DNA of 58,937 bases. Origin: a bacterium (GTDB lineage: Bacteria; Patescibacteriota; Patescibacteriia; JAHIZJ01). The notes under the pieces were generated by a model. The model saw only the letters and a program-made list of their open reading frames with translations. It did not search any database and was not told the DNA's origin. Of this stretch, positions 21,745 to 58,937 are shown in pieces; position 1 is the stretch's first letter; every line of letters starts with the position of its first letter. The DNA is taken from contig JAUYLJ010000016.1 in NCBI GenBank assembly GCA_030699685.1, positions 1 to 58,937 on the forward strand, in the 5' to 3' direction. The position numbers and the translations under genes are program-made.

Positions 21745-24531
21745 CTATTTGAGGTAGACCAGCTTCTGACTGACGGAGCTCGTGCTTGTCGTGAGACGCA
21801 CGAAGTACACGCCAGCGGCCAGAGAACGGTCGCGCCAGGAGACGCGGTAGTCACCGGGATCCTGGATCTCGTTGTCAACCAGTGTGGCGATTCTCCGGCC
21901 CTGGGGGTCGAAGACACCGAGATCGACACGGGACAGGCCCGGCAGCGTGTAGCTGATGGTTGTCCCACTGGTCGTAGCCGGATTTGGACCGAGCGACATC
22001 CGCAAGACCGCACGTGCCGCGGTTTCCGGGGCCGAGGAAGGATGAAGCATGTCGGGCAGCCAGACAGGCAGCCCGTAGGTCATCGCCCTCGAGAGGAAAT
22101 CGCGCATCGACGGTTGGGTGTGCCACAGGCGCCGAATGACGCGAAGGTAGATGTCGCCAACCAGCGACAAGTCTTCTGCCATCAGGCGCTCCTGAAAGTA
22201 CTCACGGGCGAATTCGAGGTAGAGCGCCTCTGGTCCGCCGCGGGAGTTTCCAAGAAGCAAGACGACTGAGGCTCCCTCGTCCGGATCAGCCACCGTCACC
22301 ATCTTGGCGAGGCCTGGGTAATAGCTGGGGTTGTTTCTATCCCCATCGCCCAGGCCGCATCCCACAAACTCGGCTACGATCCGCTTCTTCACGGGCAGGT
22401 AGCTCATGTCAAAGATAGGATCATACACCCGCTGGACGATGTAGCCGGGCCAAATGTTGCGGTTGGTGGTTCGGCCGGTACCGATCCACTCCTGGCGGTA
22501 GGCGTTGGCCACGAAGGCATCGAGCCGCTCACCGTATGAGTTGCAGTCGTCGAAGTCGCTGTCACGAATCGGCAGGTAGGAGATACCCGCGTCCTCGAAC
22601 CAGCCGCCGATCTCGTTGAAGGTCAGCCGCGGTTCGTCGGTAATGTTGCACAAGCTGCCGCGATCGCCGACCAGCGCCAGCACGCCCGGGTTGGGGATGT
22701 TGACGCCGTTGTAGTACTCCATCGCAGACTGGACCGCGTTCTCGACCTCGAAGAGCTGATAGGCAGCGACTCGATACGGCAGAACTTCCGGGCCGTCACC
22801 ATAGAAGTCGGTGATGGCCAGATCGCTGGCGCAGGATGACCAGTAGCAGTCGTCATACTCATTGTCGGGATGATAGGTCGTCCCGACCTTGTTCTTCTCT
22901 GGTTCGAGGCCCTCGTTGGCTTCACCAACGATGACGAGCAAGGGCCGCCGCCGCCAATCCGCGTTGACGCAAGATTCGAAGACCCCGCGCATGACATTGC
23001 GACATTCGTAGGGGTCTTCTGAGCCGAGGATCTTTTTGCACACCCAACCCTGATCTTCCCACCATTGGATGACGGGATCGCATGCGTCGAGGAAGTCGCC
23101 TCGCGAGGAGTAGAACACGATGTCGGCCGGCGAATAAGGTCCGCCGCCGCCTTGCGCGTTCGGATCCTGCATGACAGGCAAGGGTCTTGGGAGGGTATTG
23201 GTTGTTCGTAGAAGTTCTAGGTTGGCGGGTGGCACAGAACTCCGGTTGAAGGGTCGCGTTGAGTACTCTGTGTCGGGATCATCATCGGTCTCGACCACCT
23301 CGTACGCATCCGCTCCGACCGGGTCGACTACCTCGTAGTAGTGCGGCCAGTCGGGACCTCCTTCAGCGGGGACGACACCGACGACACGATCCCGGCTCTT
23401 GCCGGCGTAGACCGTGAAGTACTGCGACCCCAGCTCCGGGTCGGTGCTCCAGCAGACGTGGGTGCCGTTGACCTCCTCCCAGGCCCAGGCTCCTTCGAAG
23501 CCGCAAGCCGTATTTGGGTCGTCCGGCACGTCCGCGTAGACGGAAAACTCGTACTCTCCGCCGTTCGGCCCGATACCGTCGGCGTCGAAAGGCTTCCCGC
23601 CTCGTGAGAGCGCTTCGTCGGTCACCATGATCGTGACATCTCCTGGGTCGTAGGGGTGGATGATGAACTCTATCTCATCCCCACGAACGTCGATGTCACG
23701 AAGCACTGCCCGGCCGTTCGCCACGACCGGCGCCCGGTCAGTCAGGTCATCTAACATGTCACTATCGAAACGCACCCAGCCCGGCGTGTCTTCGTAGATG
23801 ACGCCGCCGTTTTGCGGCTCCACCTCGAGAAGTACCGGCGACAGAACCGTCTCGCCGTTCTTGAACTGCGCTAGGTTTGGAGCGAGAATGATGGCGTTAC
23901 CAACCTGCCGATTGTCAATACCGTTACGTCCATCAAGCGCTCCGAAGAGCGTCTCGAAGTCCGAGACGGTGCAGCAAGTGTCGACGCAGGCCACCAGACA
24001 TCTGGCGTCCTGGTACCCGCTCTCCAGCCAAAACTGGCTCCAGCAAGCACGGTAGACGACGAGTTCCTCATTCCCGCCGTCGAAAAGGTAGTTGACGGTT
24101 TCAGGGTTGACGGCGATACCGTAGCCACCCGCCGACTGGGACTTCCAGATCTGGTATTCGTTCCATCCGTTGTCGAGATGGAACTCATACGCGTTGTCCC
24201 GATCGGTTTCGTTTGTGTATGCCTCATAGGTTGAGGCATATTCGGAACCGTGGGTCTCGACGAAGAAGATGGCCCGATGGTACTGCCACTCCAAGTAGAA
24301 CTTGAACTTGGCCAGACCACAGTCCGGAATCGATCCGCTGCCGGAGTCATTGCTAAAGGGAACATAGGCGTAGCCATGGTTGCGAATCACCTCTGGCATG
24401 ACCGAGTATCCTGTGTTCAGGTGGAAGTTGTACGGCTTCAACACCGTAGCGCTGTCGTAGAAGGGATCCCTCGCCGCCCCCATGTTCATGAGGAGCAGGA
24501 GAGTGACAGCAAGAAGCGTGAGCTTGTTCAT
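21745..24531 (-). CDS. Gingipain-like (C25-type) secreted protein with T9SS/FlgD-like C-terminal sorting domain
   Basis: signal peptide; LLVIVGEANEGLEPEKNKVGTTYHPDNEYDDCYW...DLAITDFYGDGPEVLPYRVAAY; C-term LSLGPNPATTSGTTISYTLPGLSRVDLGVFDPQGRRIATLVDNEIQDPGDYRVSWRDRSLAAGVYFVRLTT. Confidence 0.75.
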   Translation of the reverse strand: MNKLTLLAVTLLLLMNMGAARDPFYDSATVLKPYNFHLNTGYSVMPEVIRNHGYAYVPFSNDSGSGSIPDCGLAKFKFYLEWQYHRAIFFVETHGSEYASTYEAYTNETDRDNAYEFHLDNGWNEYQIWKSQSAGGYGIAVNPETVNYLFDGGNEELVVYRACWSQFWLESGYQDARCLVACVDTCCTVSDFETLFGALDGRNGIDNRQVGNAIILAPNLAQFKNGETVLSPVLLEVEPQNGGVIYEDTPGWVRFDSDMLDDLTDRAPVVANGRAVLRDIDVRGDEIEFIIHPYDPGDVTIMVTDEALSRGGKPFDADGIGPNGGEYEFSVYADVPDDPNTACGFEGAWAWEEVNGTHVCWSTDPELGSQYFTVYAGKSRDRVVGVVPAEGGPDWPHYYEVVDPVGADAYEVVETDDDPDTEYSTRPFNRSSVPPANLELLRTTNTLPRPLPVMQDPNAQGGGGPYSPADIVFYSSRGDFLDACDPVIQWWEDQGWVCKKILGSEDPYECRNVMRGVFESCVNADWRRRPLLVIVGEANEGLEPEKNKVGTTYHPDNEYDDCYWSSCASDLAITDFYGDGPEVLPYRVAAYQLFEVENAVQSAMEYYNGVNIPNPGVLALVGDRGSLCNITDEPRLTFNEIGGWFEDAGISYLPIRDSDFDDCNSYGERLDAFVANAYRQEWIGTGRTTNRNIWPGYIVQRVYDPIFDMSYLPVKKRIVAEFVGCGLGDGDRNNPSYYPGLAKMVTVADPDEGASVVLLLGNSRGGPEALYLEFAREYFQERLMAEDLSLVGDIYLRVIRRLWHTQPSMRDFLSRAMTYGLPVWLPDMLHPSSAPETAARAVLRMSLGPNPATTSGTTISYTLPGLSRVDLGVFDPQGRRIATLVDNEIQDPGDYRVSWRDRSLAAGVYFVRLTTSTSSVSQKLVYLK

Positions 24532-24534
24532 GCG

Positions 24535-25227
24535 TCATTCCCCCACATAGCTCAGAGGCTTGGGTTGAAGGAAGACTGGCTGTGCTTCAGCCGGAATCCT
24601 CAGGTCCTGCGGGGTCCCACCTTCCTGCGCCTGCTCGATGATTCCGAGTAAGCGTGGACGGTCTTTCTGGTCGTAGATACCAACCAGTCTACCGTCCTGG
24701 AAGATGAAGATGTCGCCGTTATCCAGCATGCGCTGATAGGATGCCGCAACCTCGTGAAAAGTTGCGGACTGGAACAGCACATTGGATGTGTAGAGCTCTT
24801 CGATGTTTCCGTCATGGTATCGAACCCAGATGGCGCTTCCGCGCTTGGACGGAACAGCTTCAGCTACCACATCCGCGTGTTCACGGAGCACTTGGGCTCC
24901 TGCCGCTGCGATCTCGGGATAGCTTCCGCCTCGTTGGGCGGCTCTCATCATCACCTCGAAGGCTTCCCTGTCCGCGCGGCCTTTCGCCGTGTCGGAGTAG
25001 GCCTTGGGCACGGACTTGACCATGACCTCAGCCACAAAACCATTGATGGCGATGACGCTGTCTCCGTCGACGAAGCGCACTGAGACCAGGTTCGAGTCGG
25101 GGGTCGGAGTGACGGGGTTGCCGTCAATGATCACTTGCGTCTGGTTCCAGACTTCGGGCAGCTTGGCCTGCGCGGCCATACTGCAAAGAAGTCCGGTCAC
25201 AACCAGAACCAGAGTCATGAGTTTCAT
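24535..25227 (-). CDS. Hypothetical exported protein
   Basis: 230 aa, N-terminal signal peptide MKLMTLVLVVTGLLCSMAAQA; almost abuts the next gene. Confidence 0.65.
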   Translation of the reverse strand: MKLMTLVLVVTGLLCSMAAQAKLPEVWNQTQVIIDGNPVTPTPDSNLVSVRFVDGDSVIAINGFVAEVMVKSVPKAYSDTAKGRADREAFEVMMRAAQRGGSYPEIAAAGAQVLREHADVVAEAVPSKRGSAIWVRYHDGNIEELYTSNVLFQSATFHEVAASYQRMLDNGDIFIFQDGRLVGIYDQKDRPRLLGIIEQAQEGGTPQDLRIPAEAQPVFLQPKPLSYVGE

Positions 25228-25833
25228 AGAGAACCTCCTCGCGTTTCCGCGATTTTTGGTATTCAGTTGTCAAGGATCGTTCCTTGACGTGCTTCTGCCG
25301 GCCACGCTGGCCTGGTTGCATCAGATCCTCTGGTGCACGCTGGGCGTCTATCCATCATATAGATGGGCGACCAGCAGCCTCGGGGAAGAGATAGCACAAT
25401 GAACACCTGGGATGTGAGGCGGTGGTATGTTTGGATGAATTGTTGTGGCGGTTTCGCTACTGGCTCCCCGCTGCTCAGCTCCCGTTTTTTGGCGGAAATA
25501 AGCGACCAATTTGAGTCAGCGGATCATTACCTCACATCTCTTGCCAGCTTATACCCTTAAGGAAATTTTTGTCAAGAAGGAAGATGAGGGGTAACGGGAA
25601 ATTAAATAATCGTTTTTGTGAGCTTACCTGTGGAAAATTTAGGTAGTTTTTTGGACAATTCAAGCACGATCTTCCTCCCTGCTTACTTCATCCAAAGAAA
25701 TGGATATCGGTTTGAACCACGTTACTATTCATTCGGGATGTTCATCGAAGCTTTGGCGGATTATTCGCATTGGCTAAAGGAGTTAACATAACACCTAAAT
25801 TTATTACCGCTCCGTAAGCCTAGCTCTATGCGA

Positions 25834-25868
25834 ATAAAAAAACCCGGAGGGCTTGATAACCCACCGGG
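25834..25868 (-). terminator. Intrinsic terminator of PRTase-pyrF unit
   Basis: aaaaaaacccggagggcttgataacccaccgggt. Confidence 0.75.
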
Positions 25869-25897
25869 TATGTTTGAGTTTTGGTCCTGACCTGGTA

Positions 25898-26656
25898 TTA
25901 GGAACCAGTAGTCAGTCCCGGAGAGAGCGGCTTCCCGTATCTGGCCAGCTCTACCCAATGCTCTTTCGGGCGAATACGCTTCGACCCTGCTTGGCAGAGT
26001 GGGCAAACATCTGGACCGCTCCAGGTTTGGATGTCGTAGTGTGCGTAAGCTGTCACCGGTCTGTCTTCGAACACCGTCACATCCGACCGGTGAATGAGCA
26101 CTCCAACAACCGGTGCGAACCGGACTGGATGAGGATTGCCATCCCGGATTCCCTGACGGACTGCCTTCAGGGTGCTTGCAGTCGTCATGAGCTCTTCGAC
26201 CTGAAGGACAACCTCGTCGGGAGCAATGGTCAGCCGCTTCCACTGCTGGGTTTTTTCAGGACCCTTTACCGTGAAATCATGCTGAGCATTAGCTCCGATA
26301 GCCACGCTGTGAGAAAGATCGGCTCCAGCGTGGTCAGAGCCGATTACCCAATCAATCGCCCCGTTGTAGCGCTCCCGGATCTTTTCCAGGAGCTTGACGC
26401 CGAAGAGCTGGCAAAGGTTGGTGTATCTCAGAACGCGCAAAGTATCGATAAAGCCGTCACTGCAACCTCCGGCAGTGAGCTCGGCATGCGGATGTTCCGG
26501 ATTGCCGGAATGAAACCACATCGCTTCGCACAGGCCGAAGATATGGCCGATCTCAGCTTCTGAAAGATGGCGTCCGGCAAAGTGTTCGGATTCGAGCTGT
26601 CGGAGCTCGCCCACACTTGTCATTGCGAAGACGTCTTCGGAATTGAGAACTCCCAT
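25898..26656 (-). CDS. Orotate phosphoribosyltransferase-like PRTase
   Basis: HAELTAGGCSDGFIDTLRVL (cf. OPRT LxSGxHSDxYID) and VVLQVEELMTTASTLKAV (PRPP-loop position). Confidence 0.7.
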   Translation of the reverse strand: MGVLNSEDVFAMTSVGELRQLESEHFAGRHLSEAEIGHIFGLCEAMWFHSGNPEHPHAELTAGGCSDGFIDTLRVLRYTNLCQLFGVKLLEKIRERYNGAIDWVIGSDHAGADLSHSVAIGANAQHDFTVKGPEKTQQWKRLTIAPDEVVLQVEELMTTASTLKAVRQGIRDGNPHPVRFAPVVGVLIHRSDVTVFEDRPVTAYAHYDIQTWSGPDVCPLCQAGSKRIRPKEHWVELARYGKPLSPGLTTGS

Positions 26657-26667
26657 TGCGTGTCATC

Positions 26668-27573
26668 CTATCCCTGCGACCCGACGCCCGGAGTAAGTAT
26701 CCGGTAACGGTTGATCTGGTTGTTGAGTTCTTCGGCCTTCAAGCCGGCGGCCTCGGCGAAGTCCTCTCCGTCAGAGGCGAAGATGATTCCGCGAGACGAG
26801 TTGATGATCATCCCGGTTCCATCCTCAGTTTGTCCGGCTTCTACCGCTAGCTGGACTGGGTCACCCTGAACTTCACCGTGATCCGCCTGTTGCTTCCCGA
26901 GGCCGGGATTGAGCAGGTAGACACGGTTTCCGATCGCCTCGCGCATCTGACGCAGCTCGCCGGGATAGGTGGCGCCCATGACGAGGCCGATGTTGCTGTT
27001 GGCGTTCCACTTGGCGGCGATCCGTCTGCCTGACCAGAGCCAATAAGGCTCAGTCAGAGGTTCACCATCCCTCACCCCGGTTAACACCGGCGCGTCTTGC
27101 ATCTCCTGGGCGCCGGGATTGCTGGTCCGGCAGACGAAGATGGCGCCGCGATCCGGACGCTCGAAGAAGGGCGCCATAGACTGGCTGCCCGGGTAGGATC
27201 CCAGCGTGACCGCGTCGGCGCCATAGACGTCGAAGCAGGTGCGGGCGTAGGCCTGGGCCGTGTTCAGGACGTCGAATCTCTTCGCGTCCAGGATAACGAC
27301 GTGATGATGATGCGTTCGGCGGAGTTCCTGGATGGCTTCGATCATCGCGCCCAGCATCCGCGCTTCTTCGTAGAAGGCAATCTGGAACTTGAAGAAGGCG
27401 CAGTGCGGCGCGCACTTCTCGGCGACAGCCAGAACGAACTCAACGATCGCGTCGTGCTGCGGCCGCTTTCGCAGATGGGCGGGTAGCTGACTGACGTCCA
27501 CGTCCATCCCGACGCAGACGAGGCTGTTGGTAAACTTCCAGGCCCGTTCAAGCCGTTCTCTGAAGGTGTCCAT
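26668..27573 (-). CDS. pyrF: Orotidine 5'-phosphate decarboxylase (type 2-like)
   Basis: VCVGMDVDVSQLP; VVILDAKRFDVLNTAQAYA; VMGATYPGELRQMRE; LLNPGLGKQQAD; INSSRGIIFAS; start set at ATG 27573. Confidence 0.85.
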   Translation of the reverse strand: MDTFRERLERAWKFTNSLVCVGMDVDVSQLPAHLRKRPQHDAIVEFVLAVAEKCAPHCAFFKFQIAFYEEARMLGAMIEAIQELRRTHHHHVVILDAKRFDVLNTAQAYARTCFDVYGADAVTLGSYPGSQSMAPFFERPDRGAIFVCRTSNPGAQEMQDAPVLTGVRDGEPLTEPYWLWSGRRIAAKWNANSNIGLVMGATYPGELRQMREAIGNRVYLLNPGLGKQQADHGEVQGDPVQLAVEAGQTEDGTGMIINSSRGIIFASDGEDFAEAAGLKAEELNNQINRYRILTPGVGSQG

Positions 27574-27599
27574 GAGAAATCTTCCTCCCCGGTGGGTTG

Positions 27600-27827
27600 T
27601 TACCAGACTATGAAGGTGGTTCCGTACAGGTGGAGGACGAATCCTCCCCCCGGAGTCGGACAGCTGTCCGCGGGATAGCGGGATTCTGCACCCATTTCTC
27701 GGACGCTGAGCAAGCGTCCTTCGTCGCTCAGGCCGCAAGTAGCGGCTCCAGGTTCAGTCTTGTGACTGCTTGGAACCACCGCAGCCAAAAACGCGAAGCC
27801 GCGCAGTAGCATCGGTAGTATTCTCAT
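27600..27827 (-). CDS. Small exported protein
   Basis: 75 aa with signal-like N-terminus upstream of pyrF in the same direction. Confidence 0.4.
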   Translation of the reverse strand: MRILPMLLRGFAFLAAVVPSSHKTEPGAATCGLSDEGRLLSVREMGAESRYPADSCPTPGGGFVLHLYGTTFIVW

Positions 27828-37907: not shown

Positions 37908-38051
37908 GTACCGAAGCCACCGCAAATAATCCGCCATAGCGCCAATGTGCATCCCGGCTTCATTTTGCATTGAGAGAACCATTACTAAACATCTTTGGTG
38001 ATAAGTAAGAAGCGGAGGCGTATCTGGTTACGTACCGAAGCCACTGCAAAT
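37908..38051. repeat. Pair of direct repeats gtaccgaagccac(c/t)gcaaat
   Basis: copies at 37908-37927 and 38032-38051, each followed by tccgcca. Confidence 0.75.
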
Positions 38052-38515
38052 TCCGCCAAAGGCGGATCCGCCTCTTGAGCTAAAGGCTCATCTGCCTATG
38101 GCACGAGGGCGGAAACCCCGCTGAAGCCAGTACTCATCCAATACCAGTACTCTTGTGTGCGAATAGCAGGATTTTACTACTCCAGAACCCTGGTTCGCTT
38201 TGGAGATGCCGGATCACCCGGAGATTGTTTGCTTAAGATTCTGTTTCAGGGATCTTCATCGTGCAGAAACAAAAACATCTGCCTGGTGTCCGGCATGACA
38301 ATTGAGGCGTTTAAATGGAATCATCCCATAATAATCTCAACTCATCGTTGTAAGGGATTTCAGGCCCGCACGGGCGGCAGTGCCACATCACGTGCCTGAG
38401 AAAAACTTACTAAGGAAAGAAGTGATGTGCTTAAGCAAGTCACAGTCGGAACCAAAAAACCGTGAGCAGATGGCTGCTTGTCTGCTTTAAGTTCCCCCTT
38501 TTTTTGTCTACCAAG

Positions 38516-40816
38516 CTATTTTGCCGGATCTACTCTGATAATACGAATTGCTTCGCTGCCTTGGACCGCGTAGGGATAATTTCGGGCAGTCAGCGCGAAT
38601 TTATTGTAGTAGAGGCCGGGCTTGGGCGTGTCGAGGCGAACCGTAAAAGTGCCGATTTCTCCCGGACGAACGCTGTTTTCATTGAGCCTGATTTTGCCGT
38701 TGTTGGCTGACCAACTGGAGTCGCGGAAACGACTGACGCCGTTACCTAAGTCAAAGAGATCAAGCTGGACGTTTTGGTTCCAAGTCGTGACGCCGGTGTT
38801 TTTAAATTTAAACGTGACGGTGGGTCGCCAGTTGTCCAGCATGGCTAATGGCATGTTTGTTTCGACTAAACGGGCCTTAAACATCGAGTCTACCCTCGTC
38901 ACCCGTGAGACTTCGGAATTGATCACGTCGGTCTCGTTTTTTTTCAATTTGAAGATCTGCCGATAGTATCCGGGGCTAGTTGGGCTGGTTTCGGTAAATT
39001 CAAATGTCCCGGTTTCACCTGGTTTGACGCTGGACTCTTTCAGCTGGGCGGCCCCTACTCCATACCGGCTGGCGGCGTACCCTAAGTCATAGGCGTGCAG
39101 GCGGACGCTGTCCCGCGTCCAGGTTTCAGTGCCGGCATTTTCGAAACTGACCGACGTTGGCAGCCGCGCGCCCAGAAAACTGGCTTCATGGACCGATGTA
39201 TCGCTGGGGCGGGCAGCCCACGAGAGTCCGGTCACGTTTACTCGGATGCTGAAACGCGTGTCAGCCAGTGGGATGCCGTTTGAAGCCAGATAAAATTCTT
39301 CAGTGATATCAAGCGCGTCGCTGGGGGCAGTAATAGTGAATTCAAAGCGGCCGTCGCTTCCCGGTCTCACCCTGGGGGTGATGAGTGTGGCGGCCGTGTT
39401 GCCAGACAGCCAAGAATCGTTACCCAGCGTCGAAGGTGAGCTGGCGCTTTGGAGACTCAAGCGGGTGGGCGAGTCACTGGAGATCCAGTCGGTTGAGCCT
39501 GTGTTTTCAAAATCAGCTTTCACCGCGATGCTTTCACCGGCGTCCAGCACTAGCTCAGTGCTGGTAACGCCCTCGAGACGTCCTTGGGCGATCGGTTCGA
39601 TACTGTCGAGACCTTCGTAAATACCCTGGCTGGTTAATCGAACCCTCTCTAAATCATTCGAAAGATGCTCGCCGGGACAGGCGGTGCAGTCGACGTCGCC
39701 ATGCCCGATAATGTTCGGCAGATTGACCATGTCGCGGAAATTTGAGGAATTGTTCGGCGGGATTTCAAACAAAGCCGCTTTCTCGGCTATGAGATAGGAT
39801 AATGGCGCGAACGCGTCTTCAGGAACGGAATTCTCTTCGTAGTTTCCCAAAATTGCTATGCCGATAGTGCCGCGGTTGAAATCAACCCCACCTTCTTTGC
39901 CAAAGCGTTGTTCGTTGCAGGTTGAGTTGCGGAATGTGTGAGCGCCAATGGCACCGTCTCCGCCTTTACGCCCTTCATAGACCCGGCCCCGGCCGTCGAT
40001 CAAATAGTTGTAACCGATATCGCCCCAGCCGTTGACTACCGCATGCCAATAGTGAATTGCCCGGACAGTGGCTTCAGGGTCGTTGCCTCCGTCCGAACCG
40101 GCCGTGTGATGGATGATAATCTTTTCAGGTTCAGTATATTCCGGCTCCCAATAGGTGACATCTTCGTCAGCTCCCCATTGCTCCCGAGTAATCACAACCA
40201 CGTCAGCTTTCGCCCTTGGTATAAGTTTACTCAATGTCCGGCCAATGAAAGAAAGCGGCCGTGACGGGGTTTTCGTGGATATGGTAATAGTCTCCACGTT
40301 CTCGAGCGTCTCGACGGATCGATACGAGTATTGAAATGTCTTGATTGGCTCAATAAAAAACAAGTCGGTTGACTGAAGCTCGCCATCTGTATTTTTTATA
40401 TCAACTTTGGGCGGGACTACCATCCAGCCGGACCAATCCTGCCCTTGTTTGAATCGCACTTGGAAGTCGGCGTCGCGGCTGCCGTTCCACGTGAAACCAA
40501 TGGCGTTGAATTCACGTTCGGCGGTGATTTCGTTCGAGACGATTTTCGTGCCGGTATGCGTTTCGAGCGGCAGAGTTGTTTGAGCGAATGTTTGGGTGCT
40601 GGTGAGAGGCTTGAGTTCGGCGTTGACTTCTACTCCGGCAATGACCAGCAGCGCCACGGCAGCCAGTCCGGCCGCCACCGCCTTGAGTCGAAGGGGCTTA
40701 TGGAGTTTCCGTCTAGCCGTGAACACGAAGACTCCCAGCATGGGAGAGAGGCTGGTTAGGAAAGGGAGAATATGAGATGAATTTTTTCCGGGCGCTTGCC
40801 CGCAGACGAAACACAT
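38516..40816 (-). CDS. Peptidoglycan-recognition/amidase_2 protein with NBR1-like Ig repeats
   Basis: KIIIHHTAGSDGGNDPEATVRAIHYWHAVVNGWGDIGYNYLIDGRGRVYEGR; three FxNxGxxxW repeats. Confidence 0.88.
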   Translation of the reverse strand: MCFVCGQAPGKNSSHILPFLTSLSPMLGVFVFTARRKLHKPLRLKAVAAGLAAVALLVIAGVEVNAELKPLTSTQTFAQTTLPLETHTGTKIVSNEITAEREFNAIGFTWNGSRDADFQVRFKQGQDWSGWMVVPPKVDIKNTDGELQSTDLFFIEPIKTFQYSYRSVETLENVETITISTKTPSRPLSFIGRTLSKLIPRAKADVVVITREQWGADEDVTYWEPEYTEPEKIIIHHTAGSDGGNDPEATVRAIHYWHAVVNGWGDIGYNYLIDGRGRVYEGRKGGDGAIGAHTFRNSTCNEQRFGKEGGVDFNRGTIGIAILGNYEENSVPEDAFAPLSYLIAEKAALFEIPPNNSSNFRDMVNLPNIIGHGDVDCTACPGEHLSNDLERVRLTSQGIYEGLDSIEPIAQGRLEGVTSTELVLDAGESIAVKADFENTGSTDWISSDSPTRLSLQSASSPSTLGNDSWLSGNTAATLITPRVRPGSDGRFEFTITAPSDALDITEEFYLASNGIPLADTRFSIRVNVTGLSWAARPSDTSVHEASFLGARLPTSVSFENAGTETWTRDSVRLHAYDLGYAASRYGVGAAQLKESSVKPGETGTFEFTETSPTSPGYYRQIFKLKKNETDVINSEVSRVTRVDSMFKARLVETNMPLAMLDNWRPTVTFKFKNTGVTTWNQNVQLDLFDLGNGVSRFRDSSWSANNGKIRLNENSVRPGEIGTFTVRLDTPKPGLYYNKFALTARNYPYAVQGSEAIRIIRVDPAK

Positions 40817-46578: not shown

Positions 46579-46701
46579 GGGTTAATGACGATATCAGAAT
46601 ATCACTAACGGCATAGGTTGAGCAATAATCCAGTAGCCCATGCAAGCGCGAGGACATGAACAATTTTAGTGTTCAAGGTCGTTTTGGGAGTAGGGTATAG
46701 A

Positions 46702-46730
46702 TTGACCGGGAGTGAAAAATATGATACAAT
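46702..46730 (+). promoter_or_regulatory. Promoter for SpoIID-like gene
   Basis: TTGACC-17 nt-TACAAT. Confidence 0.65.
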
Positions 46731-46809
46731 GAAGGTGTCGGTTGGAATCGGTGTCGCGGCAAACTACCGCCACCGATCCACAAAACAAAAACAAAATTCA
46801 AGCACGAAG

Positions 46810-48861
46810 GTGAAAAAACAAAAACAAAACCGCATTTGGGATATTTGCTATTCCCGAGGCGTGGTCGGACATTCAGACGGGCCGTATTATTCCCGTCACC
46901 AATCAGGCGTCACCGTGACGGAAAAAGCGTTGCGGGTTTTCGGGTTCATGATTGCGGCGTTTCTGTCGGCACAGATTCTCAACGGTGCGCAGAATTATCT
47001 GCTGCAGGATCGAGGCGTGCTGGCCTATTTTGAATCCAACATTGTTCGAGAACGCATCAGTCTGGGCTATGTGGGCAGCTATTTTCCGCCAAACCCCGAT
47101 GGCCAGATTGGTGAATATCCCGAAACGGCGGAAGGAGACGATGCTTCGACCGTATTGTCCGCCAATACTCATCGTGCCCGAATAGCCGCGGCGGCTGAAG
47201 GCCTGGCGGCCAGCGTAACCGTGCCTGATTATCGTGCAGAGCTGGTCAGTCAGAATTACAAAACGATAAATATCGCGCCAGGCCGAGCTTTCACATTTGA
47301 AGCTCGTTTTCGTAATACCGGCCGGGCGGATTGGACGAAGCAGGGCCCTCATTATATCGGCGTCAATGTGACTGATCCCGCGGGACGTCACTCGCCTTTT
47401 TGGCATCCGTTTTGGAGCGAATATTACTATCGGTCCGGCAGACTGGTCGAAACCAAAGTAGCTCCGGGCGAGGTGGGCACTTTCCGTTTTGCCCTCCAAG
47501 CGCCGGCAAAAGAAGGCAGCTATCGTGAAAGTTTTCACCTAGTCGCGGAGCATCTGACTTGGATCAGCGGCGGGAAAATGTCTCTAGAAATCCAGGTTTT
47601 GCCTCGTTACCAGGCTGAGATCATCAGCCAAACGGACTCCCTGACAGTAAGCCCGGGGGCAGTGGCGAAAGTGACCGTTGAGGCTCGCAATACGGGTGCT
47701 GAAGCGTGGAGTAATAGCGGTGAGAATTTTATCGCCTTAAACGTAACGGCGCCGACTGGCCGCCACTCAAAATTTCAGCATGCCAGCTGGGATGAATATT
47801 ACTATCGCCCTACCCGGCTCGAGACCAGCCGCGTTTCCTCCGGCCAGACGGGAGCGTTTGAGTTCACTATCCAGGCCCCGCTGCAATCTGGCAGCTATAC
47901 TGAGAGTTTTGGCATCGTGGCTGAAAACGCCGCCTGGCTTCCTGGCGGAAACGTAACCATTCCAATCACCGTTACGCAGACAGACGCCAGTGTCCGTGCC
48001 GGCGAACCGAGCGTTCGGGTGGGTTTGTATCAGGCTGAAAGCCAGGTTCAACTGACCGGTTTGGACAATTTTCGACTTATTGACGGCGGAGGTGAAATCG
48101 TGGCTGAGTATGCTTCGGGGGTTCCAGTCACGATTTCGTTTTCCGCAACCTCGTTTGAGGTTAACGCTGATGGCGTGCGGCAGAGCTTGACCGGGCCGAT
48201 CCGGTTCGAAGCGATCGACGACGCGACGGTGTTTGAACTTTTGAATTATGAAAACCGTCCAGAGTGGAATCTGGCGCTGAACGATAATATGTTTCGCGGC
48301 GTTATCGAGATTCGCCAGGTTGACGATTCGGATCAGGTCTGGGTGATCAATGAGCTGCCGCTGGAACAATATTTGTTGGGGGTGGCAGAATCGTCCAATG
48401 AAAATCCAACCGAATTTCTGAAAGCGCTCGCCGTGGCGGAACGAAGCTATGTTTTGTACCACCTGGCCAATGGCGGGAAACATCAGGACGAGGGCTTCAC
48501 CGTGGACGCGAAGTACGATCAAGTGTATCGCGGATACAACTTCGAGCTTCGAGCTCCCGCGGTGGGGAAAAATGTATTAACCACGGCGGGGCAAGCGGTA
48601 GCGTATGAGGATGAGGTGGTGGTTACACCATATTTTTCCCATTCCGATGGCCGAACCCGATCCTGGGAAGAGGTATGGTCAGGCGGTCCTTATCCGTGGC
48701 TCGAAACCGTGGCCGATCCGGCCAGTGCCGGCAAGCAGATGAGCGGCCATGGCGTCGGGATGAGCGCGCTCGGCGCAAGAAGCATGGCTGAAGACGGAGC
48801 TTTATACGAAGACATTCTCGCGTATTATTATTCGGGAACCGTTTTGTTGGCCGTCTATTAA
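46810..48861 (+). CDS. SpoIID/LytB-domain protein with NBR1-like Ig repeats
   Basis: two RNTGxxxW-type repeats; ELPLEQYLLGVAESSNENPTEFLKALAVAERSYVLYH; HGVGMSALGARSMAEDG; start inferred downstream of promoter. Confidence 0.85.
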   Translation: MKKQKQNRIWDICYSRGVVGHSDGPYYSRHQSGVTVTEKALRVFGFMIAAFLSAQILNGAQNYLLQDRGVLAYFESNIVRERISLGYVGSYFPPNPDGQIGEYPETAEGDDASTVLSANTHRARIAAAAEGLAASVTVPDYRAELVSQNYKTINIAPGRAFTFEARFRNTGRADWTKQGPHYIGVNVTDPAGRHSPFWHPFWSEYYYRSGRLVETKVAPGEVGTFRFALQAPAKEGSYRESFHLVAEHLTWISGGKMSLEIQVLPRYQAEIISQTDSLTVSPGAVAKVTVEARNTGAEAWSNSGENFIALNVTAPTGRHSKFQHASWDEYYYRPTRLETSRVSSGQTGAFEFTIQAPLQSGSYTESFGIVAENAAWLPGGNVTIPITVTQTDASVRAGEPSVRVGLYQAESQVQLTGLDNFRLIDGGGEIVAEYASGVPVTISFSATSFEVNADGVRQSLTGPIRFEAIDDATVFELLNYENRPEWNLALNDNMFRGVIEIRQVDDSDQVWVINELPLEQYLLGVAESSNENPTEFLKALAVAERSYVLYHLANGGKHQDEGFTVDAKYDQVYRGYNFELRAPAVGKNVLTTAGQAVAYEDEVVVTPYFSHSDGRTRSWEEVWSGGPYPWLETVADPASAGKQMSGHGVGMSALGARSMAEDGALYEDILAYYYSGTVLLAVY

Positions 48862-52464: not shown

Positions 52465-53490
52465 TTATGTAATCAGCATCGCGTCGCCAAAAGAGTAGAA
52501 ACGATAGTGTTTTTTAATTGCTGTTTCGTAGGCTTTGAGGACTTTCGTCCGTCCAGCAAAGGCGGACACGAGTATGAACAAAGTTGATTTTGGCAAATGA
52601 AAGTTGGTGATCATGGCGTCAGTCATTTTGAATTTGTAGCCGGGTATGATGAAGATATTAGTTGACTGGCTGATTTGTTGATTCGTTAATTGGCGAGGCA
52701 GGCTTTCGAGCGTGCGAACGGTGGTGGTGCCGACAGCGATGATGCGCCGCCCCTCTCTTTTAGCTTTGACCAGCCGTTGATAAACCGCCTTTGACATCTC
52801 TAGATGTTCAGGATGCATTCGGTGACGTTCGATGGTCGTTTCTTTGACCGGCTGGAAGGTTCCGTAGCCGACGTGCAGCGTGACATATTCGATCTGGACG
52901 CCCAGCGTTCGTATGCGGTTCATGAGTCGATTCGTGAAATGAAAACCGGCAGTTGGCGCGGCCACTGATCCGGATTTTTTTGCGAACACTGTTTGATATT
53001 CTTTGAGATTGGAAAGGCGTTTAACGTACGGGGGCGTAGGAGCGGTACCGAGCCGATGGATAGCGGCTCGGAGTTTCGCGCCGGACCGGTTGAAACGAAT
53101 ATGCCAAGTGCCGTTGGTGAGGTGTTTGATAACAACTCCTTTCAGACCGCCAAACCTTTGTTTTTCCATGCTGATTTCAAGACCGACCCGCCGCCCTTTC
53201 CCGCCCAAGAGGCACTCCCAGGTATTCGCGCTGACAGGCTTGAGCAAAAACACTTCTATTTTTCCTCCACTTTCTTTTCGGGCATTGAGACGGGCCGGAA
53301 AGACTTTTGTATTATTCAAAACGAGTACGTCGCCTGATTTGAGATATTCAGTAATTTCAAAAAAATGCCGGTGACTGATCGCTCCGGTTTTTCGGTTGAG
53401 CACCAAAAGACGTGATTGATCGCGCGGCCGGACCGGTTTCTGGGCGATTCGATCAGGAGGAAGGTGAAAATCAAAAAGTGACAGTTTCAT
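52465..53490 (-). CDS. queA: S-adenosylmethionine:tRNA ribosyltransferase-isomerase
   Basis: MKLSLFDFHLPPDRIAQKPVRPRDQSRLLVL; PTAGFHFT; TLHVGYGTFQPV; NFHLPKSTLFILVSAFAG; RFYSFGDAMLI. Confidence 0.97.
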   Translation of the reverse strand: MKLSLFDFHLPPDRIAQKPVRPRDQSRLLVLNRKTGAISHRHFFEITEYLKSGDVLVLNNTKVFPARLNARKESGGKIEVFLLKPVSANTWECLLGGKGRRVGLEISMEKQRFGGLKGVVIKHLTNGTWHIRFNRSGAKLRAAIHRLGTAPTPPYVKRLSNLKEYQTVFAKKSGSVAAPTAGFHFTNRLMNRIRTLGVQIEYVTLHVGYGTFQPVKETTIERHRMHPEHLEMSKAVYQRLVKAKREGRRIIAVGTTTVRTLESLPRQLTNQQISQSTNIFIIPGYKFKMTDAMITNFHLPKSTLFILVSAFAGRTKVLKAYETAIKKHYRFYSFGDAMLIT

Positions 53491-53526
53491 GAAAGTCAGG
53501 ATACAATGCCTTTACTGAAAACAAAA

Positions 53527-53549
53527 GGCCCACTCAGCGTTGAGTAGGC
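53527..53549 (-). terminator. Intrinsic terminator
   Basis: ggcccactcagcgttgagtaggc. Confidence 0.7.
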
Positions 53550-53569
53550 AATTTTCCGGCTTGTTTCTA

Positions 53570-54403
53570 CTAAATGGGGTAGGGAGTGTCCCGCCGAACG
53601 AGCCAGATTCGATCGGCCTCTCCGGAAAGGTGTTCCCAGCCGTAGAGCGGCTCTGGTCGGGCTGGATCGGTCAAGGTGCGCACACGAGATGAATGGTCGC
53701 CGACAGTCATGACGGAATCAATTTGGACGACCTCAATGCCAGGCTGAATCGGCTTGTTGTGCCAGTAGAGCTTATCGCCTGGTCTCAAAGTGAGAAAACG
53801 ACCTTCAGTCAGCGCATACTCGTCATAGTTTCCGTCGCGCGTGACGCGATGGGAGACCGAAGTGATTGGTATGCGCATGATACGGAGCGGAAGCTCTACC
53901 TGCACCCGCTGTGAAGTCAGCAGTCTGGCTGTTGAGTTTAACCTGTGGGGATCAGGTGCGTCTGTCTTCATCACCTCCTGAAGCCCGAAGAGGACCTCGT
54001 CGGTGATCTCAAATCGATACGTCATGAAAAGACATTGACCCATGTGGCGGTTGTAGGCCAACAGAAGCTTGCCACGACATTGGGGGCCGTAGGGGCCCCA
54101 GGCGTAGTATAGCTGGAACATCGTCGAAGAGTCATCGAGTATCACCCAGCAAGAGTCGCAGTCTTGCCAAACCGCGAAGTTTGTCATGAATTCGTCAGGA
54201 GGATCCTGTACCATGTTACGAACAAGGACCACGGGGTAACGCCCCGTATCGAGGTGCTCCCTTGGGTATCGCACGAAGTCTCGGCTAGCCACGAGGTTGG
54301 CTTCGTTGATCTCATCATCGAGATGGTTCTGGCCGCAGCCTGACGTAGCAATGGCTATTTCAAGCAACGACATAAACACAATAAGGAACGACCAGCTTCT
54401 CAT
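53570..54403 (-). CDS. Hypothetical lipoprotein
   Basis: 277 aa; signal peptide ending in SGCG; own promoter and terminator. Confidence 0.6.
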   Translation of the reverse strand: MRSWSFLIVFMSLLEIAIATSGCGQNHLDDEINEANLVASRDFVRYPREHLDTGRYPVVLVRNMVQDPPDEFMTNFAVWQDCDSCWVILDDSSTMFQLYYAWGPYGPQCRGKLLLAYNRHMGQCLFMTYRFEITDEVLFGLQEVMKTDAPDPHRLNSTARLLTSQRVQVELPLRIMRIPITSVSHRVTRDGNYDEYALTEGRFLTLRPGDKLYWHNKPIQPGIEVVQIDSVMTVGDHSSRVRTLTDPARPEPLYGWEHLSGEADRIWLVRRDTPYPI

Positions 54404-54522
54404 GATTTCGATACCTCCCTTGATTCAGCGGAATTCTATCGTTTCATCTGGTGCAATCGACTTGTTACAATAACACGAAATATTTAGCTGTCAATGACAA
54501 TGGACTCTTTGTCAAAAAATGG

Positions 54523-54528
54523 TATAAT
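54523..54528 (+). promoter_or_regulatory. -10 element, probable leaderless transcript
   Basis: TATAAT six bases upstream of ATG 54535. Confidence 0.65.
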
Positions 54529-54534
54529 ATCGCA

Positions 54535-56421
54535 ATGAAAGTTCGACGTGGCATAAAAATTTCCGGGCTCATCTTTCTGTTATTGATCGTTGGCGCGGGT
54601 ATTGGAGTGTTTATATTGCTTTGGTCACCGGAAGTGTCGGCTTTTGTCGTAACACAGTACGAAGATAAAGCCGACTTGGAGACTACCGCACTGATTCAAT
54701 TCAATAAGCCGGTCAATCGTCGCGCTTTGGTACCGAACATAGAGCCGTATGTCGACGGCTACTGGGAGTACGAGGAATCGTGGCTGGGAAAGCATTTTTT
54801 CTCGGCCCTTCGTTTCGTGCCGGCGCACACACTGGATCCCGCAACCACTTATCAGATCACGCTACAAGGGATAACTGATGCCTTGACTTGGTCTGACCCA
54901 AAGAACTACACCGCGGATTTCTCCACCCGATCTTTGCCGAACGTGGAGAGCGTTATTCCAGCTGATTCCATGGAAGATATCGCCCCCGACGAAGCGATTC
55001 TTGTCCGTTTGTCTGAACCGGCCGGGAATTATGTCCAGCTTTATGCCCGAGTCACTCCCGCCGCTGATTTTACTCTTTCACAAAACGGTGAGCTTGACGA
55101 GTTCGTTATTACGCCAAACGAAGGATGGCAGCAGGGGGTGGAATATCATCTCGTCCTGGATCGGGTGTTTACGTCGTACGACAGGGAGTCGGGTTCACTG
55201 ATGAAGCAAAGCGACGCGGTTGCGGTCTATGTTGGCACGTTTTCGGTGCTGCCGCCGCCCGAAGTCGAGGCATTCGCTCCAACCGGCGACCATGTCTCAG
55301 TGGGCGCTTCGTCGATTGTCACTTTTTCGGAAGCCATGGATGAGGCGAGCGTACAAGAAAATTTCAGCGTTAGCCCGGATCTGCCAGGCAATCTGACGCT
55401 AGAGGCTGAGGGCAAAGAACTGCGCTTTACCCCTGACGAAGCGTGGCCGTTTGAAACGGAGATCGCCATTATGGTCGCGGCTGGTACAAAAACGGCGGCC
55501 GGCGGGTTTTTGCCCGAAGACATTCAGCATAGTTTCAAAACAATCGGACCGGTTCACGTGCTGTATACGACACCTGGAGACGGAGCCAGCCGGATCGTGA
55601 CGAGTGCGAGTATCCGGATTGTCTTTGATCAGGCGGCGGACCATCAGTCTGCTCAGGCGGCCTTTACCATCCAGCCGGCTATGGAAGGGGACTTCAGCTG
55701 GGAAGACAACACGATGATTTTTACGCCTCGCTCTGATCTAGCCTACGACTCTGCGTATCTAGTGAATATTGCTGCAGGGATCATCAGTGTCGATGGGCAG
55801 GATTCCCAGGCAGAATATAATTTTGCTTTTTCAACCGCCCCCACCACTTTCATTTTAAACGTCGCTTCGGATCTTCAGGATCGCCCCTTGTCCTGCGAAG
55901 CGGCCGCCCTGAAGATGGCTTTAGCGAACAAAGGCGTGGCGGTGACGGAGAGTCAGATCATGGAACACGTCGGATATACGGAACCTTCGCAGAGGTCGAA
56001 CGGCGTCTGGGGAAATCCGCACATTGGATTTGTTGGTAACATTGACGGGACGCAAAACACGACCGGCTACGGCGTCTACTGGGAGCCGATCGCCCGTGCC
56101 GGTAACAATTGGCGGCCAAGTGAGGCATTCACCGGGTGGAATGTGACGCAATTAGCTCAGGAAGTTGAGGCGGGGAACGCCGTGGTGGTGTGGGGCGTGT
56201 ATGGTTCGGGATACCAAGATTCCTGGACGACGCCTGATGGAGGTAGTGTCTATGCCTGGAAGGGTGAACACACCCGCACGGTGATTGGTTTCGTCGGCTC
56301 CGTCGAAAACCCCGAACGCATTATTCTGAACGATCCATATGCCGGTCAGGTTTCTTGGACTCGCGCGCAGTTTGAACAGAACTGGGGCATCTTTGGTAAC
56401 GCGGGAGTAGTGGTGCGCTAA
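54535..56421 (+). CDS. Exported protein with SbsA-type Ig repeats and C39-like peptidase domain
   Basis: N-terminal TM; Ig-like repeats (VIPADSMEDIAPDEAILVRLSEP, FAPTGDHVSVGASSIVTFSEAMDEASVQENF); SCEAAALKMAL...AWKGEHTRTVIGFVG...ILNDPYAG. Confidence 0.85.
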   Translation: MKVRRGIKISGLIFLLLIVGAGIGVFILLWSPEVSAFVVTQYEDKADLETTALIQFNKPVNRRALVPNIEPYVDGYWEYEESWLGKHFFSALRFVPAHTLDPATTYQITLQGITDALTWSDPKNYTADFSTRSLPNVESVIPADSMEDIAPDEAILVRLSEPAGNYVQLYARVTPAADFTLSQNGELDEFVITPNEGWQQGVEYHLVLDRVFTSYDRESGSLMKQSDAVAVYVGTFSVLPPPEVEAFAPTGDHVSVGASSIVTFSEAMDEASVQENFSVSPDLPGNLTLEAEGKELRFTPDEAWPFETEIAIMVAAGTKTAAGGFLPEDIQHSFKTIGPVHVLYTTPGDGASRIVTSASIRIVFDQAADHQSAQAAFTIQPAMEGDFSWEDNTMIFTPRSDLAYDSAYLVNIAAGIISVDGQDSQAEYNFAFSTAPTTFILNVASDLQDRPLSCEAAALKMALANKGVAVTESQIMEHVGYTEPSQRSNGVWGNPHIGFVGNIDGTQNTTGYGVYWEPIARAGNNWRPSEAFTGWNVTQLAQEVEAGNAVVVWGVYGSGYQDSWTTPDGGSVYAWKGEHTRTVIGFVGSVENPERIILNDPYAGQVSWTRAQFEQNWGIFGNAGVVVR

Positions 56422-57230
56422 AGGACTTGTTTCGCAGCGGAGCGTCTTTTTGCTATGACAAAAATAATTAGTACAACAGGCACGACAAACACAGTATACG
56501 GATAGATAACGTGGCTTTCAACAGCAGAGAGCCACTGGATGAATAATAACGGCAATGGGATCCAGACCGCGCAAAGCCAGGCAATTGACCGTGAAAAAAA
56601 GTGCCGCCCGGCGCCTACCAAAAGGTACCCCAGCAGAAAATCACCGACTCCCAATATTTGCCCGTCAAAACCAACTAAGCCGTTCAGCAAAGGGCTGGGA
56701 TCCGATTCGAAGGTCAATTCAGGCAGTACCCAGATGTTGACCGCGTCGTACGCCGTGAAGGCGATAGCTAGAAGAATGAAGATTCGCAATGAAAGCTTGA
56801 TACGGCGAAACAGTATTGGTCCCACCCAAAGAATTGACCCGGCTGTAACAATATTGAAATAGTGCTGACTGGGAAACCACAGGGCGACAAGGACAATGCC
56901 CGTCGCGCCCAGGAGGCTGAAGCTGAGCCGCGCCGGTAGACGCGATAGGGGGAGGAGATAAAAAATATTTGCCGCCCAGGAAACGAGCAGTAGGAGGATA
57001 ATAAAAGTTGAATAAGTATTCTCCTCCGCGTGTCGAAGCGCAAAAGTGGCGGCTGCCACCGCCAATATCCCTATGATGACGACGGTTAGCCAAGTGAGCG
57101 GCTGTCGTAACGCAGCGGATTTTTTGATGCTAAGAAAGACAAAGCTATATTTGTCATACAACAGAATGCTGAGTGACAGCATGATGAAGAGAAACACGGC
57201 GAGCATGATTGTTGCTTCCATGAAAGACAA
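56418..57230 (-). CDS. Multi-pass membrane protein, unknown
   Basis: 270 aa, strongly hydrophobic. Confidence 0.65.
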   Translation of the reverse strand: MSFMEATIMLAVFLFIMLSLSILLYDKYSFVFLSIKKSAALRQPLTWLTVVIIGILAVAAATFALRHAEENTYSTFIILLLLVSWAANIFYLLPLSRLPARLSFSLLGATGIVLVALWFPSQHYFNIVTAGSILWVGPILFRRIKLSLRIFILLAIAFTAYDAVNIWVLPELTFESDPSPLLNGLVGFDGQILGVGDFLLGYLLVGAGRHFFSRSIAWLCAVWIPLPLLFIQWLSAVESHVIYPYTVFVVPVVLIIFVIAKRRSAAKQVL

Positions 57231-57274
57231 TTCAAGTGATAACGTCAGGTATTGTACCCTAACTTGGCCAAAAG

Positions 57275-57304
57275 AAAAACCGCCATAGTGTCACCATGAC
57301 GGCG
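57275..57304 (-). terminator. Intrinsic terminator
   Basis: aaaaaccgccatagtgtcaccatgacggcg. Confidence 0.8.
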
Positions 57305-57312
57305 CTCGATGC

Positions 57313-58062
57313 CTAAGGGGCATCTTCGCTAATGGGCGGGTTTTCCCAAAGGGTATTTGCCCCCCTCGGAAGGACGACGGCGTCCTCTGCTGCCTCGGCC
57401 ACTTCTGGCCAGGTGATCCAGCGTGGATCACCGTAGTATTCATCGATCGATTGGACAAGGATGCGGTTACCCTCTCGGTCCAGAACCCGATCGACGCTTG
57501 CGGGGTGGCTTGCTTCCTCGTACCACTCTATGATGTCGCCGGGTACGAGCATGTCGAAGTGTGGCGGCGTGGCAAGAACCGGACGTTGATTTCCCGAGGC
57601 CGAGATGGATGCGTGACTATGAGAGTCTATGCGGATTATCTCGAGCCGGGTGAGGAATTGCCTGGCGTCTCGGAACTTGAGATCAGTGCGTATCGGCAGT
57701 GAAAACATGTAACCGAGATGCCGGTTCTGTAGTGGTGAGAGTCGGCAGTTTTCACCGATGATCTCCAGGGCTTGGTTGCCCGGAGAGTAGACCAGTATCA
57801 GATTGATCTCCGGTAAGCCACCCTCAGGTTGGGGCAGTCCGCCGAAGCGCTGATAGACGAGATCATTGCCACGCAGGGTGGACCCGATCTTGTCTGGCGG
57901 ATGCCCAGACTCGGCGACGCCATGGGCCAACAGCTTCTGGTCATAATTCAGCCCGGGGATAGTCACTGCCTCCTGGCGTGTTTCCTCGGACTGCTGAGAG
58001 CAGCCGGCGAAGAAAACCAGATGGGCCAGTATGGTCAGGGAAAAGATCATGCAGCGGTTCAT
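57313..58062 (-). CDS. Hypothetical lipoprotein
   Basis: 250 codons; lipobox FFAGC; start set at ATG 58062. Confidence 0.65.
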   Translation of the reverse strand: MNRCMIFSLTILAHLVFFAGCSQQSEETRQEAVTIPGLNYDQKLLAHGVAESGHPPDKIGSTLRGNDLVYQRFGGLPQPEGGLPEINLILVYSPGNQALEIIGENCRLSPLQNRHLGYMFSLPIRTDLKFRDARQFLTRLEIIRIDSHSHASISASGNQRPVLATPPHFDMLVPGDIIEWYEEASHPASVDRVLDREGNRILVQSIDEYYGDPRWITWPEVAEAAEDAVVLPRGANTLWENPPISEDAP

Positions 58063-58178
58063 AACTCTTTCCTTCCAGGTTCGAGGATTGGCACTTCCAG
58101 GCGGGAAATTGTGAGAGGACATTTGATCTAGACCTACGACTCTACCCGAAAAGTGCTGACGCGTCAATACGCCGGAAA

Positions 58179-58206
58179 TTGACAAGAGGCAGGAATACAT
58201 TATTAT
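58179..58206 (+). promoter_or_regulatory. Promoter of structured RNA
   Basis: TTGACA-16 nt-TATTAT. Confidence 0.65.
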
Positions 58207-58212
58207 TCCTCC

Positions 58213-58356
58213 TAGTAACTTCAGGCTGCCGTCTCAATGGCGTTCCGGTAGAGACGGCAGCGTAGTGCTAGCCGGAACGTCAACCAGAGTTCTGCGCTTG
58301 GCTGGCGCAGCGCCCCGTTTCATAAGTCTCTGAGGCTGAAAAGGCGGGGTTTTTTA
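58213..58356 (+). ncRNA. Candidate structured small RNA (H-type pseudoknot + hairpin + terminator)
   Basis: P1 58225-58235/58251-58261 (11 bp perfect); loop 58238-58248 pairs with 58272-58282 (10 WC + 1 G-U); P3 58292-58297/58305-58310; terminator 58313-58349 + T7. Confidence 0.7.
58313..58356 (+). terminator. Intrinsic terminator of structured RNA
   Basis: ccccgttt...aggcgggg + ttttttt. Confidence 0.8.
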
Positions 58357-58395
58357 TTCATCCACTTTGAGTTGGCCGGCAGTCCAGAAGGAGGA

Positions 58396-58424
58396 TTGAC
58401 AGAAACAGTTTTCTCGTGTACAAA
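58396..58424 (+). promoter_or_regulatory. Promoter for downstream ORF
   Basis: TTGACA-17 nt-TACAAA. Confidence 0.55.
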
Positions 58425-58501
58425 CACTTGCAGCCAACATCATGTGAGCAATCGATCCTTGAAAATTAAATCAAGCGTTTACTCAGGAAAGGGGCTTTAC
58501 C

Positions 58502-58937
58502 GTGTTTAATCGGCAAATGCTTGAAAAGCAGCTGACTTGGACGGGCTGGCCGTCCTTTGCCGTCATGTTTATCGCGGGCAGCGCCGCGATTTTGTCTGCG
58601 CTCATCCCCGATCTGCACACGCTGACCTTTGAGCTGAATTTTCCGAAGCGGATCGTCTGCCATCGTCACGCGGCGGACACTGAATTCGTGCTTGGCTGTG
58701 CCGTCGAAGAGTTGCGGAAAATTGTTCCGACGCCGGTGGAGTATTTCATCATTGAAGAAGGTTGGACGCTGAATGACTACGTGGCCAGGACCCGGCATCT
58801 TTGGGAAACATACCGGAGAGGAGAGATTCCCGCGCTTCCGGAGGTGAATCCTGACAAACTGGAGAGGATCGAACTCACCTGGTTCCAGGGACAGGGGTTA
58901 GTCATCGGCTATGCGTACAGCGACATGCTCAATTCAG
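58502..58937 (+). CDS. Hypothetical membrane-anchored protein, truncated by window end
   Basis: open frame (GTG start) MLEKQLTWTGWPSFAVMFIAGSAAILSALIPDLHTLTFELNF... to the last base; absent from the ORF track because it lacks a stop. Confidence 0.65.
   Translation, partial: MFNRQMLEKQLTWTGWPSFAVMFIAGSAAILSALIPDLHTLTFELNFPKRIVCHRHAADTEFVLGCAVEELRKIVPTPVEYFIIEEGWTLNDYVARTRHLWETYRRGEIPALPEVNPDKLERIELTWFQGQGLVIGYAYSDMLNS

What the first reader, a model, noticed from the sequence alone, without database searches (positions are those of the whole stretch)
58179..58356. Self-contained structured RNA unit with a pseudoknot
No good ORF here, but a full transcription unit: TTGACA-16-TATTAT promoter, then an 11-bp perfect stem (GCTGCCGTCTC/GAGACGGCAGC). 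Its 15-nt loop contains TGGCGTTCCGG, which pairs with CCGGAACGTCA 24 nt downstream. A 6-bp hairpin and a strong intrinsic terminator follow. The next ORF (58502) has its own promoter, so this looks like a stand-alone sRNA or a terminating leader. The overlapping stem and loop pairings could be a pseudoknot or mutually exclusive switch states. It does not match any riboswitch or ncRNA consensus I know.
Basis: seen in the sequence. Interest (0 to 1): 0.78.

Follow-up and report, generated by a model that had tools for sequence, protein, structure and literature searches.

The report
Lineage-specific candidate small RNA gene
A short stretch between two genes in a small bacterial genome looks like a free-standing gene for a folded regulatory RNA of about 140 letters, but no relative of it could be found in any other genome searched, so its fold and function rest on one sequence.

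Summary
The sequence features are real. A near-consensus promoter (TTGACA-16-TATTAT) is followed by an 11-bp perfect stem, the only such stem in the window. Its loop can pair with a downstream segment (11 bp, one G-U). A strong intrinsic terminator follows. Stem plus loop pairing arises about 0.003 times per shuffled window. A second promoter-like site precedes the next ORF, so a stand-alone ~140-nt sRNA is more likely than a terminating leader.

The structural reading needs correction. The downstream "6-bp hairpin" is nearly absent from the nested ensemble (p 0.003). The loop's partner is instead taken by a longer hairpin, 58265-58273/58300-58308 (p about 0.98). By a rough estimate the pseudoknotted and nested folds are close in energy. 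Both keep the terminator, so this is not a termination switch. A full 11-bp loop helix is doubtful sterically.

There is no Rfam match. DNA, covariance-model and flanking-protein searches of related genomes, phages and plasmids found no relative (viral contigs gave only short partial matches). Covariation therefore cannot be tested. Verdict: a plausible lineage-specific (orphan) sRNA, pseudoknot unproven, low to moderate interest. A family-wide c-di-GMP-II-GAG-type riboswitch elsewhere in the window has better comparative support.

The parts
58179..58206 (+). sigma-70-type promoter, TTGACA-16-TATTAT; start of RNA expected near 58213
   Evidence: 11 of 12 consensus positions; no transcript data
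58213..58355 (+). predicted structured sRNA transcript of about 140 nt
   Evidence: promoter to terminator; fold z -3.9; no ORF, no Rfam match
58225..58261 (+). P1: 11-bp perfect stem (58225-58235/58251-58261) with 15-nt loop
   Evidence: only such hairpin in the window; pairing probability 0.999
58238..58282 (+). P2: loop 58238-58248 complementary to 58272-58282 (possible pseudoknot, 10 WC + 1 GU)
   Evidence: 0.003 per shuffled window jointly with P1; not tested by covariation
58265..58308 (+). H2': competing hairpin, 9-bp outer stem 58265-58273/58300-58308, excludes P2 and H3
   Evidence: pair probability about 0.94-0.99 in the nested ensemble
58292..58310 (+).
   Evidence: mean probability 0.003 in the nested ensemble; reappears when P2 is imposed
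58312..58355 (+). intrinsic terminator: 9-bp outer stem, inner 5-bp hairpin, T6
   Evidence: folds at -18.1 kcal/mol; present in every alternative fold examined
58396..58424 (+). second promoter-like site TTGACA-17-TACAAA before the next ORF
   Evidence: read; 10 of 12 consensus positions; not listed because its sixth -10 base is not T
58502..58936 (+). downstream ORF (cut by the contig end), no family, no homologue
57313..58062 (-). divergent upstream gene, predicted lipoprotein (MNRCMIFSLTILAHLVFFAGCSQQ), no homologue found
   Evidence: a weaker promoter-like site for it at 58167-58139

Best explanation
It is an independently transcribed, intrinsically terminated small RNA gene of about 140 nt, specific to this lineage. 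RNA starts near 58213 and ends in the T run at 58350-58355. The RNA folds into a very stable P1 hairpin, a middle domain and the terminator hairpin. The middle segment 58265-58282 has two mutually exclusive partners: the P1 loop (a partial pseudoknot of perhaps 6-8 bp) or 58300-58308 (hairpin H2'). It most likely acts in trans, by base-pairing or by binding a protein, with the P1 loop exposed in the nested state and hidden in the pseudoknotted state. Shown: the sequence elements and their excess over shuffled sequence. Inferred: transcription, the fold in the cell, and any regulatory role; the targets are unknown.
For: Consensus promoter and spacing; stem plus loop complementarity far above shuffles; stable fold also without the terminator (z -3.2); intrinsic terminator with T6; no ORF and no known RNA family; a separate promoter-like site before the next ORF; terminator unaffected by the alternative folds.
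Against: No homologue by DNA, by covariance model or by flanking genes in any genome searched, so selection on the structure is not shown. No transcript data. Other intergenic stretches of this window fold as well or better. It lies about 600 bases from a contig end in a draft assembly.
Confidence: 0.6

Rival explanations
1. Terminating 5' leader (attenuator or riboswitch-like element) of the ORF at 58502: the RNA reads through the terminator only when a ligand or protein changes the fold.
For: Same strand, next gene downstream, terminator at the end of a structured domain, alternative pairings present.
Against: About 145 nt lie between terminator and start codon with a separate 10/12 promoter-like site. 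The terminator's arms take no part in the alternative pairings, so no antiterminator was found. The downstream gene has no homologue through which a conserved leader could be seen.
Confidence: 0.2
2. Chance or remnant: an intergenic stretch with a promoter-like site and inverted repeats but no functional RNA, for example decayed mobile DNA.
For: No conservation anywhere; neighbouring genes are also orphans, and synteny with the best relative ends at QueA (52465), so this is a variable end of the contig; reader selection among many features.
Against: The joint stem and loop pairing is expected 0.003 times per window, and it lies exactly between a consensus promoter and an intrinsic terminator on the same strand. 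One copy only, so it is not a repeat family in this genome.
Confidence: 0.17
3. Cis-acting control of the downstream gene by base pairing of the RNA with its ribosome-binding site.
For: GCCCCGTTTC (58312-58321) is nearly complementary to GAAAGGGGC before the 58502 start (read).
Against: The predicted interaction is no better than 10% of shuffles (30 of 300), and the segment lies in the terminator stem.
Confidence: 0.03

Closest known systems
Intergenic, Rho-independently terminated bacterial small regulatory RNAs (general kind)
   Same: Own promoter, about 140 nt, no ORF, several stem-loops, terminator as the 3' end.
   Different: No sequence relation to any curated family; no known target, chaperone or expression.
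Pseudoknotted regulatory RNAs with hairpin loop paired to a 3' segment (H-type, as in preQ1, SAM-II or pistol-type RNAs; from general knowledge)
   Same: Topology: a hairpin loop that can pair with a segment 3' of the stem.
   Different: No Rfam match to any of them. Both helices are 11 bp with a 2-nt first linker, which probably cannot form completely together. No regulated gene follows closely.
poplar-1 RNA (RF03041) and mir-885 (RF01015), the only weak Rfam hits
   Same: Hairpin-shaped partial alignments.
   Different: 13.4 and 16.9 bits against gathering scores of 110.5 and 66; the mir-885 match is on the other strand and is an animal family. Chance.

Membership tests
Intrinsically terminated intergenic sRNA | Own promoter upstream of the RNA | tested here: met
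   TTGACA-16-TATTAT, 11 of 12; sequence only
Intrinsically terminated intergenic sRNA | Intrinsic terminator at the 3' end | tested here: met
   9-bp stem with inner hairpin and T6, -18.1 kcal/mol
Intrinsically terminated intergenic sRNA | A discrete transcript exists | not testable with these tools
   No RNA-seq
Intrinsically terminated intergenic sRNA | No protein-coding ORF in the transcript | tested here: met
   No + strand ORF of 30 aa or more within it
Structured RNA class with pseudoknot | Covarying helices in homologues | tested here: inconclusive
   No homologue in 288 class and 384 phylum genomes or in 37 relatives with the corrected model
Structured RNA class with pseudoknot | Pseudoknot favoured over nested folds | tested here: inconclusive
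   Rough estimate -60 to -62 kcal/mol for 7-8 bp loop helices and -68 for all 11, against -63.1 nested
Any Rfam 15 family | Score at or above gathering threshold | tested here: not met
Terminating riboswitch or attenuator | Aptamer or antiterminator pairing that excludes the terminator | tested here: not met
   Terminator present in all alternative folds examined

The most novel reading that the evidence does not exclude
A new class of bistable pseudoknotted RNA, in which one segment chooses between the loop of a very stable hairpin and a downstream hairpin, exposing or hiding the loop for target binding, restricted to an undersampled lineage of small-genome bacteria.
Probability: 0.07. Interest if true: 0.5.

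Novelty: new member of a known kind. Interest (0 to 1): 0.25.

Why it matters
If transcribed, it would be a lineage-specific regulatory RNA in a bacterium with a reduced genome of about 1.15 Mb, a group in which I know of little work on RNA regulation. By itself an orphan candidate without relatives or targets changes little; it becomes testable once transcriptomes or closer genomes exist.

Tried and rejected
DNA search of the unit in the own genome and 58 relatives: only itself, other matches short chance hits. Phage and plasmid records: none. Rfam permissive search: only chance-level mir-885 and poplar-1. Flanking protein searches in genome contigs (58502 protein only), viral contigs, plasmids and phages (58502 protein only): none. 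An orotidine decarboxylase of the window, tried as a bait for a possible donor lineage: none.

Single-sequence covariance model R1 had the H3 and terminator brackets shifted by one or two columns; I noticed this and built R2 with the corrected fold. R2 was run on 37 relatives only, R1 on 288 and 384 genomes. R1's sequence part and P1 were right, so close homologues would have been found, but distant ones could be missed by either.

Two viral contigs carry the exact P1 stem (L015, L016). Outside those 34-37 bases the full-length model finds nothing beyond one weak hit in L016 (E 2.6), the L015 locus shows no wider DNA similarity, and the L016 loop differs in length, so I treat them as convergent hairpins. 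A third contig with an exact 17-mer (L032) gave no model hit.

Idea that the contig is a chimaera with foreign islands: rejected for 8643-53490, because many genes there, including the foreign-looking ones at 21745-27738, have orthologues in a same-family genome, largely in the same order. Base pairing of the RNA with the ribosome-binding regions of both neighbours: not clearly better than shuffles.

Full report
What is there. On the + strand a TTGACA-16-TATTAT promoter (58179-58206) is followed, about a dozen bases after the expected start, by an 11-bp perfect stem (P1, 58225-58235/58251-58261) with a 15-base loop. Eleven loop bases (58238-58248) are complementary to 58272-58282 with a single G-U pair. 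A GC hairpin and an intrinsic terminator with six T end the unit at 58355. The simple terminator scan does not list the terminator because it allows loops of only 3-8 bases.

Is it more than chance. P1 is the only perfect 11-bp hairpin of loop 20 or less in the window; shuffled windows give 0.23. Together with a loop pairing of 11 or more, shuffles give 0.003 per window. The 144-nt transcript folds with z -3.9, and -3.2 without the terminator. Several other intergenic stretches of the same window fold equally well or better, so the z-score alone is not special; the ordered set promoter, stem, loop complement and terminator is.

The fold. RNAfold puts 58265-58273 against 58300-58308 with pair probabilities of about 0.94-0.99, which excludes both the loop pairing and the 6-bp hairpin (probability 0.003). 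Imposing the loop pairing restores the 6-bp hairpin. With a standard pseudoknot penalty of 9.6 kcal/mol, taken from general knowledge, the pseudoknotted state comes out at -60 to -62 for 7 to 8 loop pairs and -68 for all 11, against -63.1 for the nested fold. All eleven pairs are doubtful, because only two bases link the stems across a full helical turn (inference). The two states are therefore close, and a bistable RNA is possible. The terminator stands in both, so this pair of states cannot work as a terminator/antiterminator switch.

Stand-alone or leader. The next ORF starts at 58502, about 145 bases after the T run, and has a 10/12 promoter-like site at 58396-58424 (read). The divergent gene 57313-58062 (predicted lipoprotein) has a weaker site of its own. 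This favours a stand-alone RNA. Neither neighbour has a family or homologue, so the conserved-leader idea cannot be tested. No pairing of the RNA with the start regions of its neighbours clearly beats shuffles.

Relatives. No Rfam 15 family matches. Searches of the own genome, 58 relatives, 288 genomes of the class and 384 of the phylum found only the window copy; a corrected model gave the same in 37 relatives. Phage and plasmid records gave nothing, and the viral-contig matches are limited to P1 or a 17-mer. The window's gene order follows that of a same-family genome for much of 8643-53490 and breaks after QueA; the RNA sits in a lineage-specific end of the contig among orphan genes. The closest genomes are of other genera (gyrA about 80% identical), so absence there does not exclude conservation within the genus.

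Verdict. A credible, unproven orphan sRNA gene. The pseudoknot is a real complementarity with a real competitor. Ordinary in kind, new as a sequence.

Noticed in passing
window 25437-25543 (- strand): Rfam c-di-GMP-II-GAG riboswitch match at 40.4 bits (gathering 40), upstream of a secreted-protein gene (24535-25227). Matches also occur in both same-family genomes: two in G002 (45.5 and 45.2 bits, one at the syntenic place G002:C1:194225-194339 about 300 bases before the orthologue) and one in G001 (36.6 bits, below cut-off). One of 36 other class genomes has weak hits, and 14 control genomes have none. A conserved riboswitch in reduced genomes with better comparative support than the finding itself.
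   Followed up: partly
window 21745-24531 (- strand): 928-aa secreted protein with a weak C-terminal match to the type IX secretion sorting domain (Por_Secre_tail, E 0.0006, below its cut-off); an orthologue with 41% identity lies in a same-family genome. Odd for a genome this small.
   Followed up: partly
window 37979-38118 (+ strand): Intergenic stretch with a very stable predicted fold (z -5.3, 0 of 200 shuffles as good), with no promoter- or terminator-like site listed within it by the consensus scan.
   Followed up: no
window 53490-58937: After QueA the synteny with the same-family genome G002 stops; the C39-peptidase/Ig-like gene (54451-56421) has its relative far away in G002, and the genes at 53570, 56418, 57313 and 58502 had no match where searched. 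A lineage-specific segment of orphan lipoprotein-like genes.
   Followed up: partly
window 38516-40816 and 46669-48861: Two encoded proteins share a region of 22-25% identity (E 1.7e-12), apparently a common domain.
   Followed up: no
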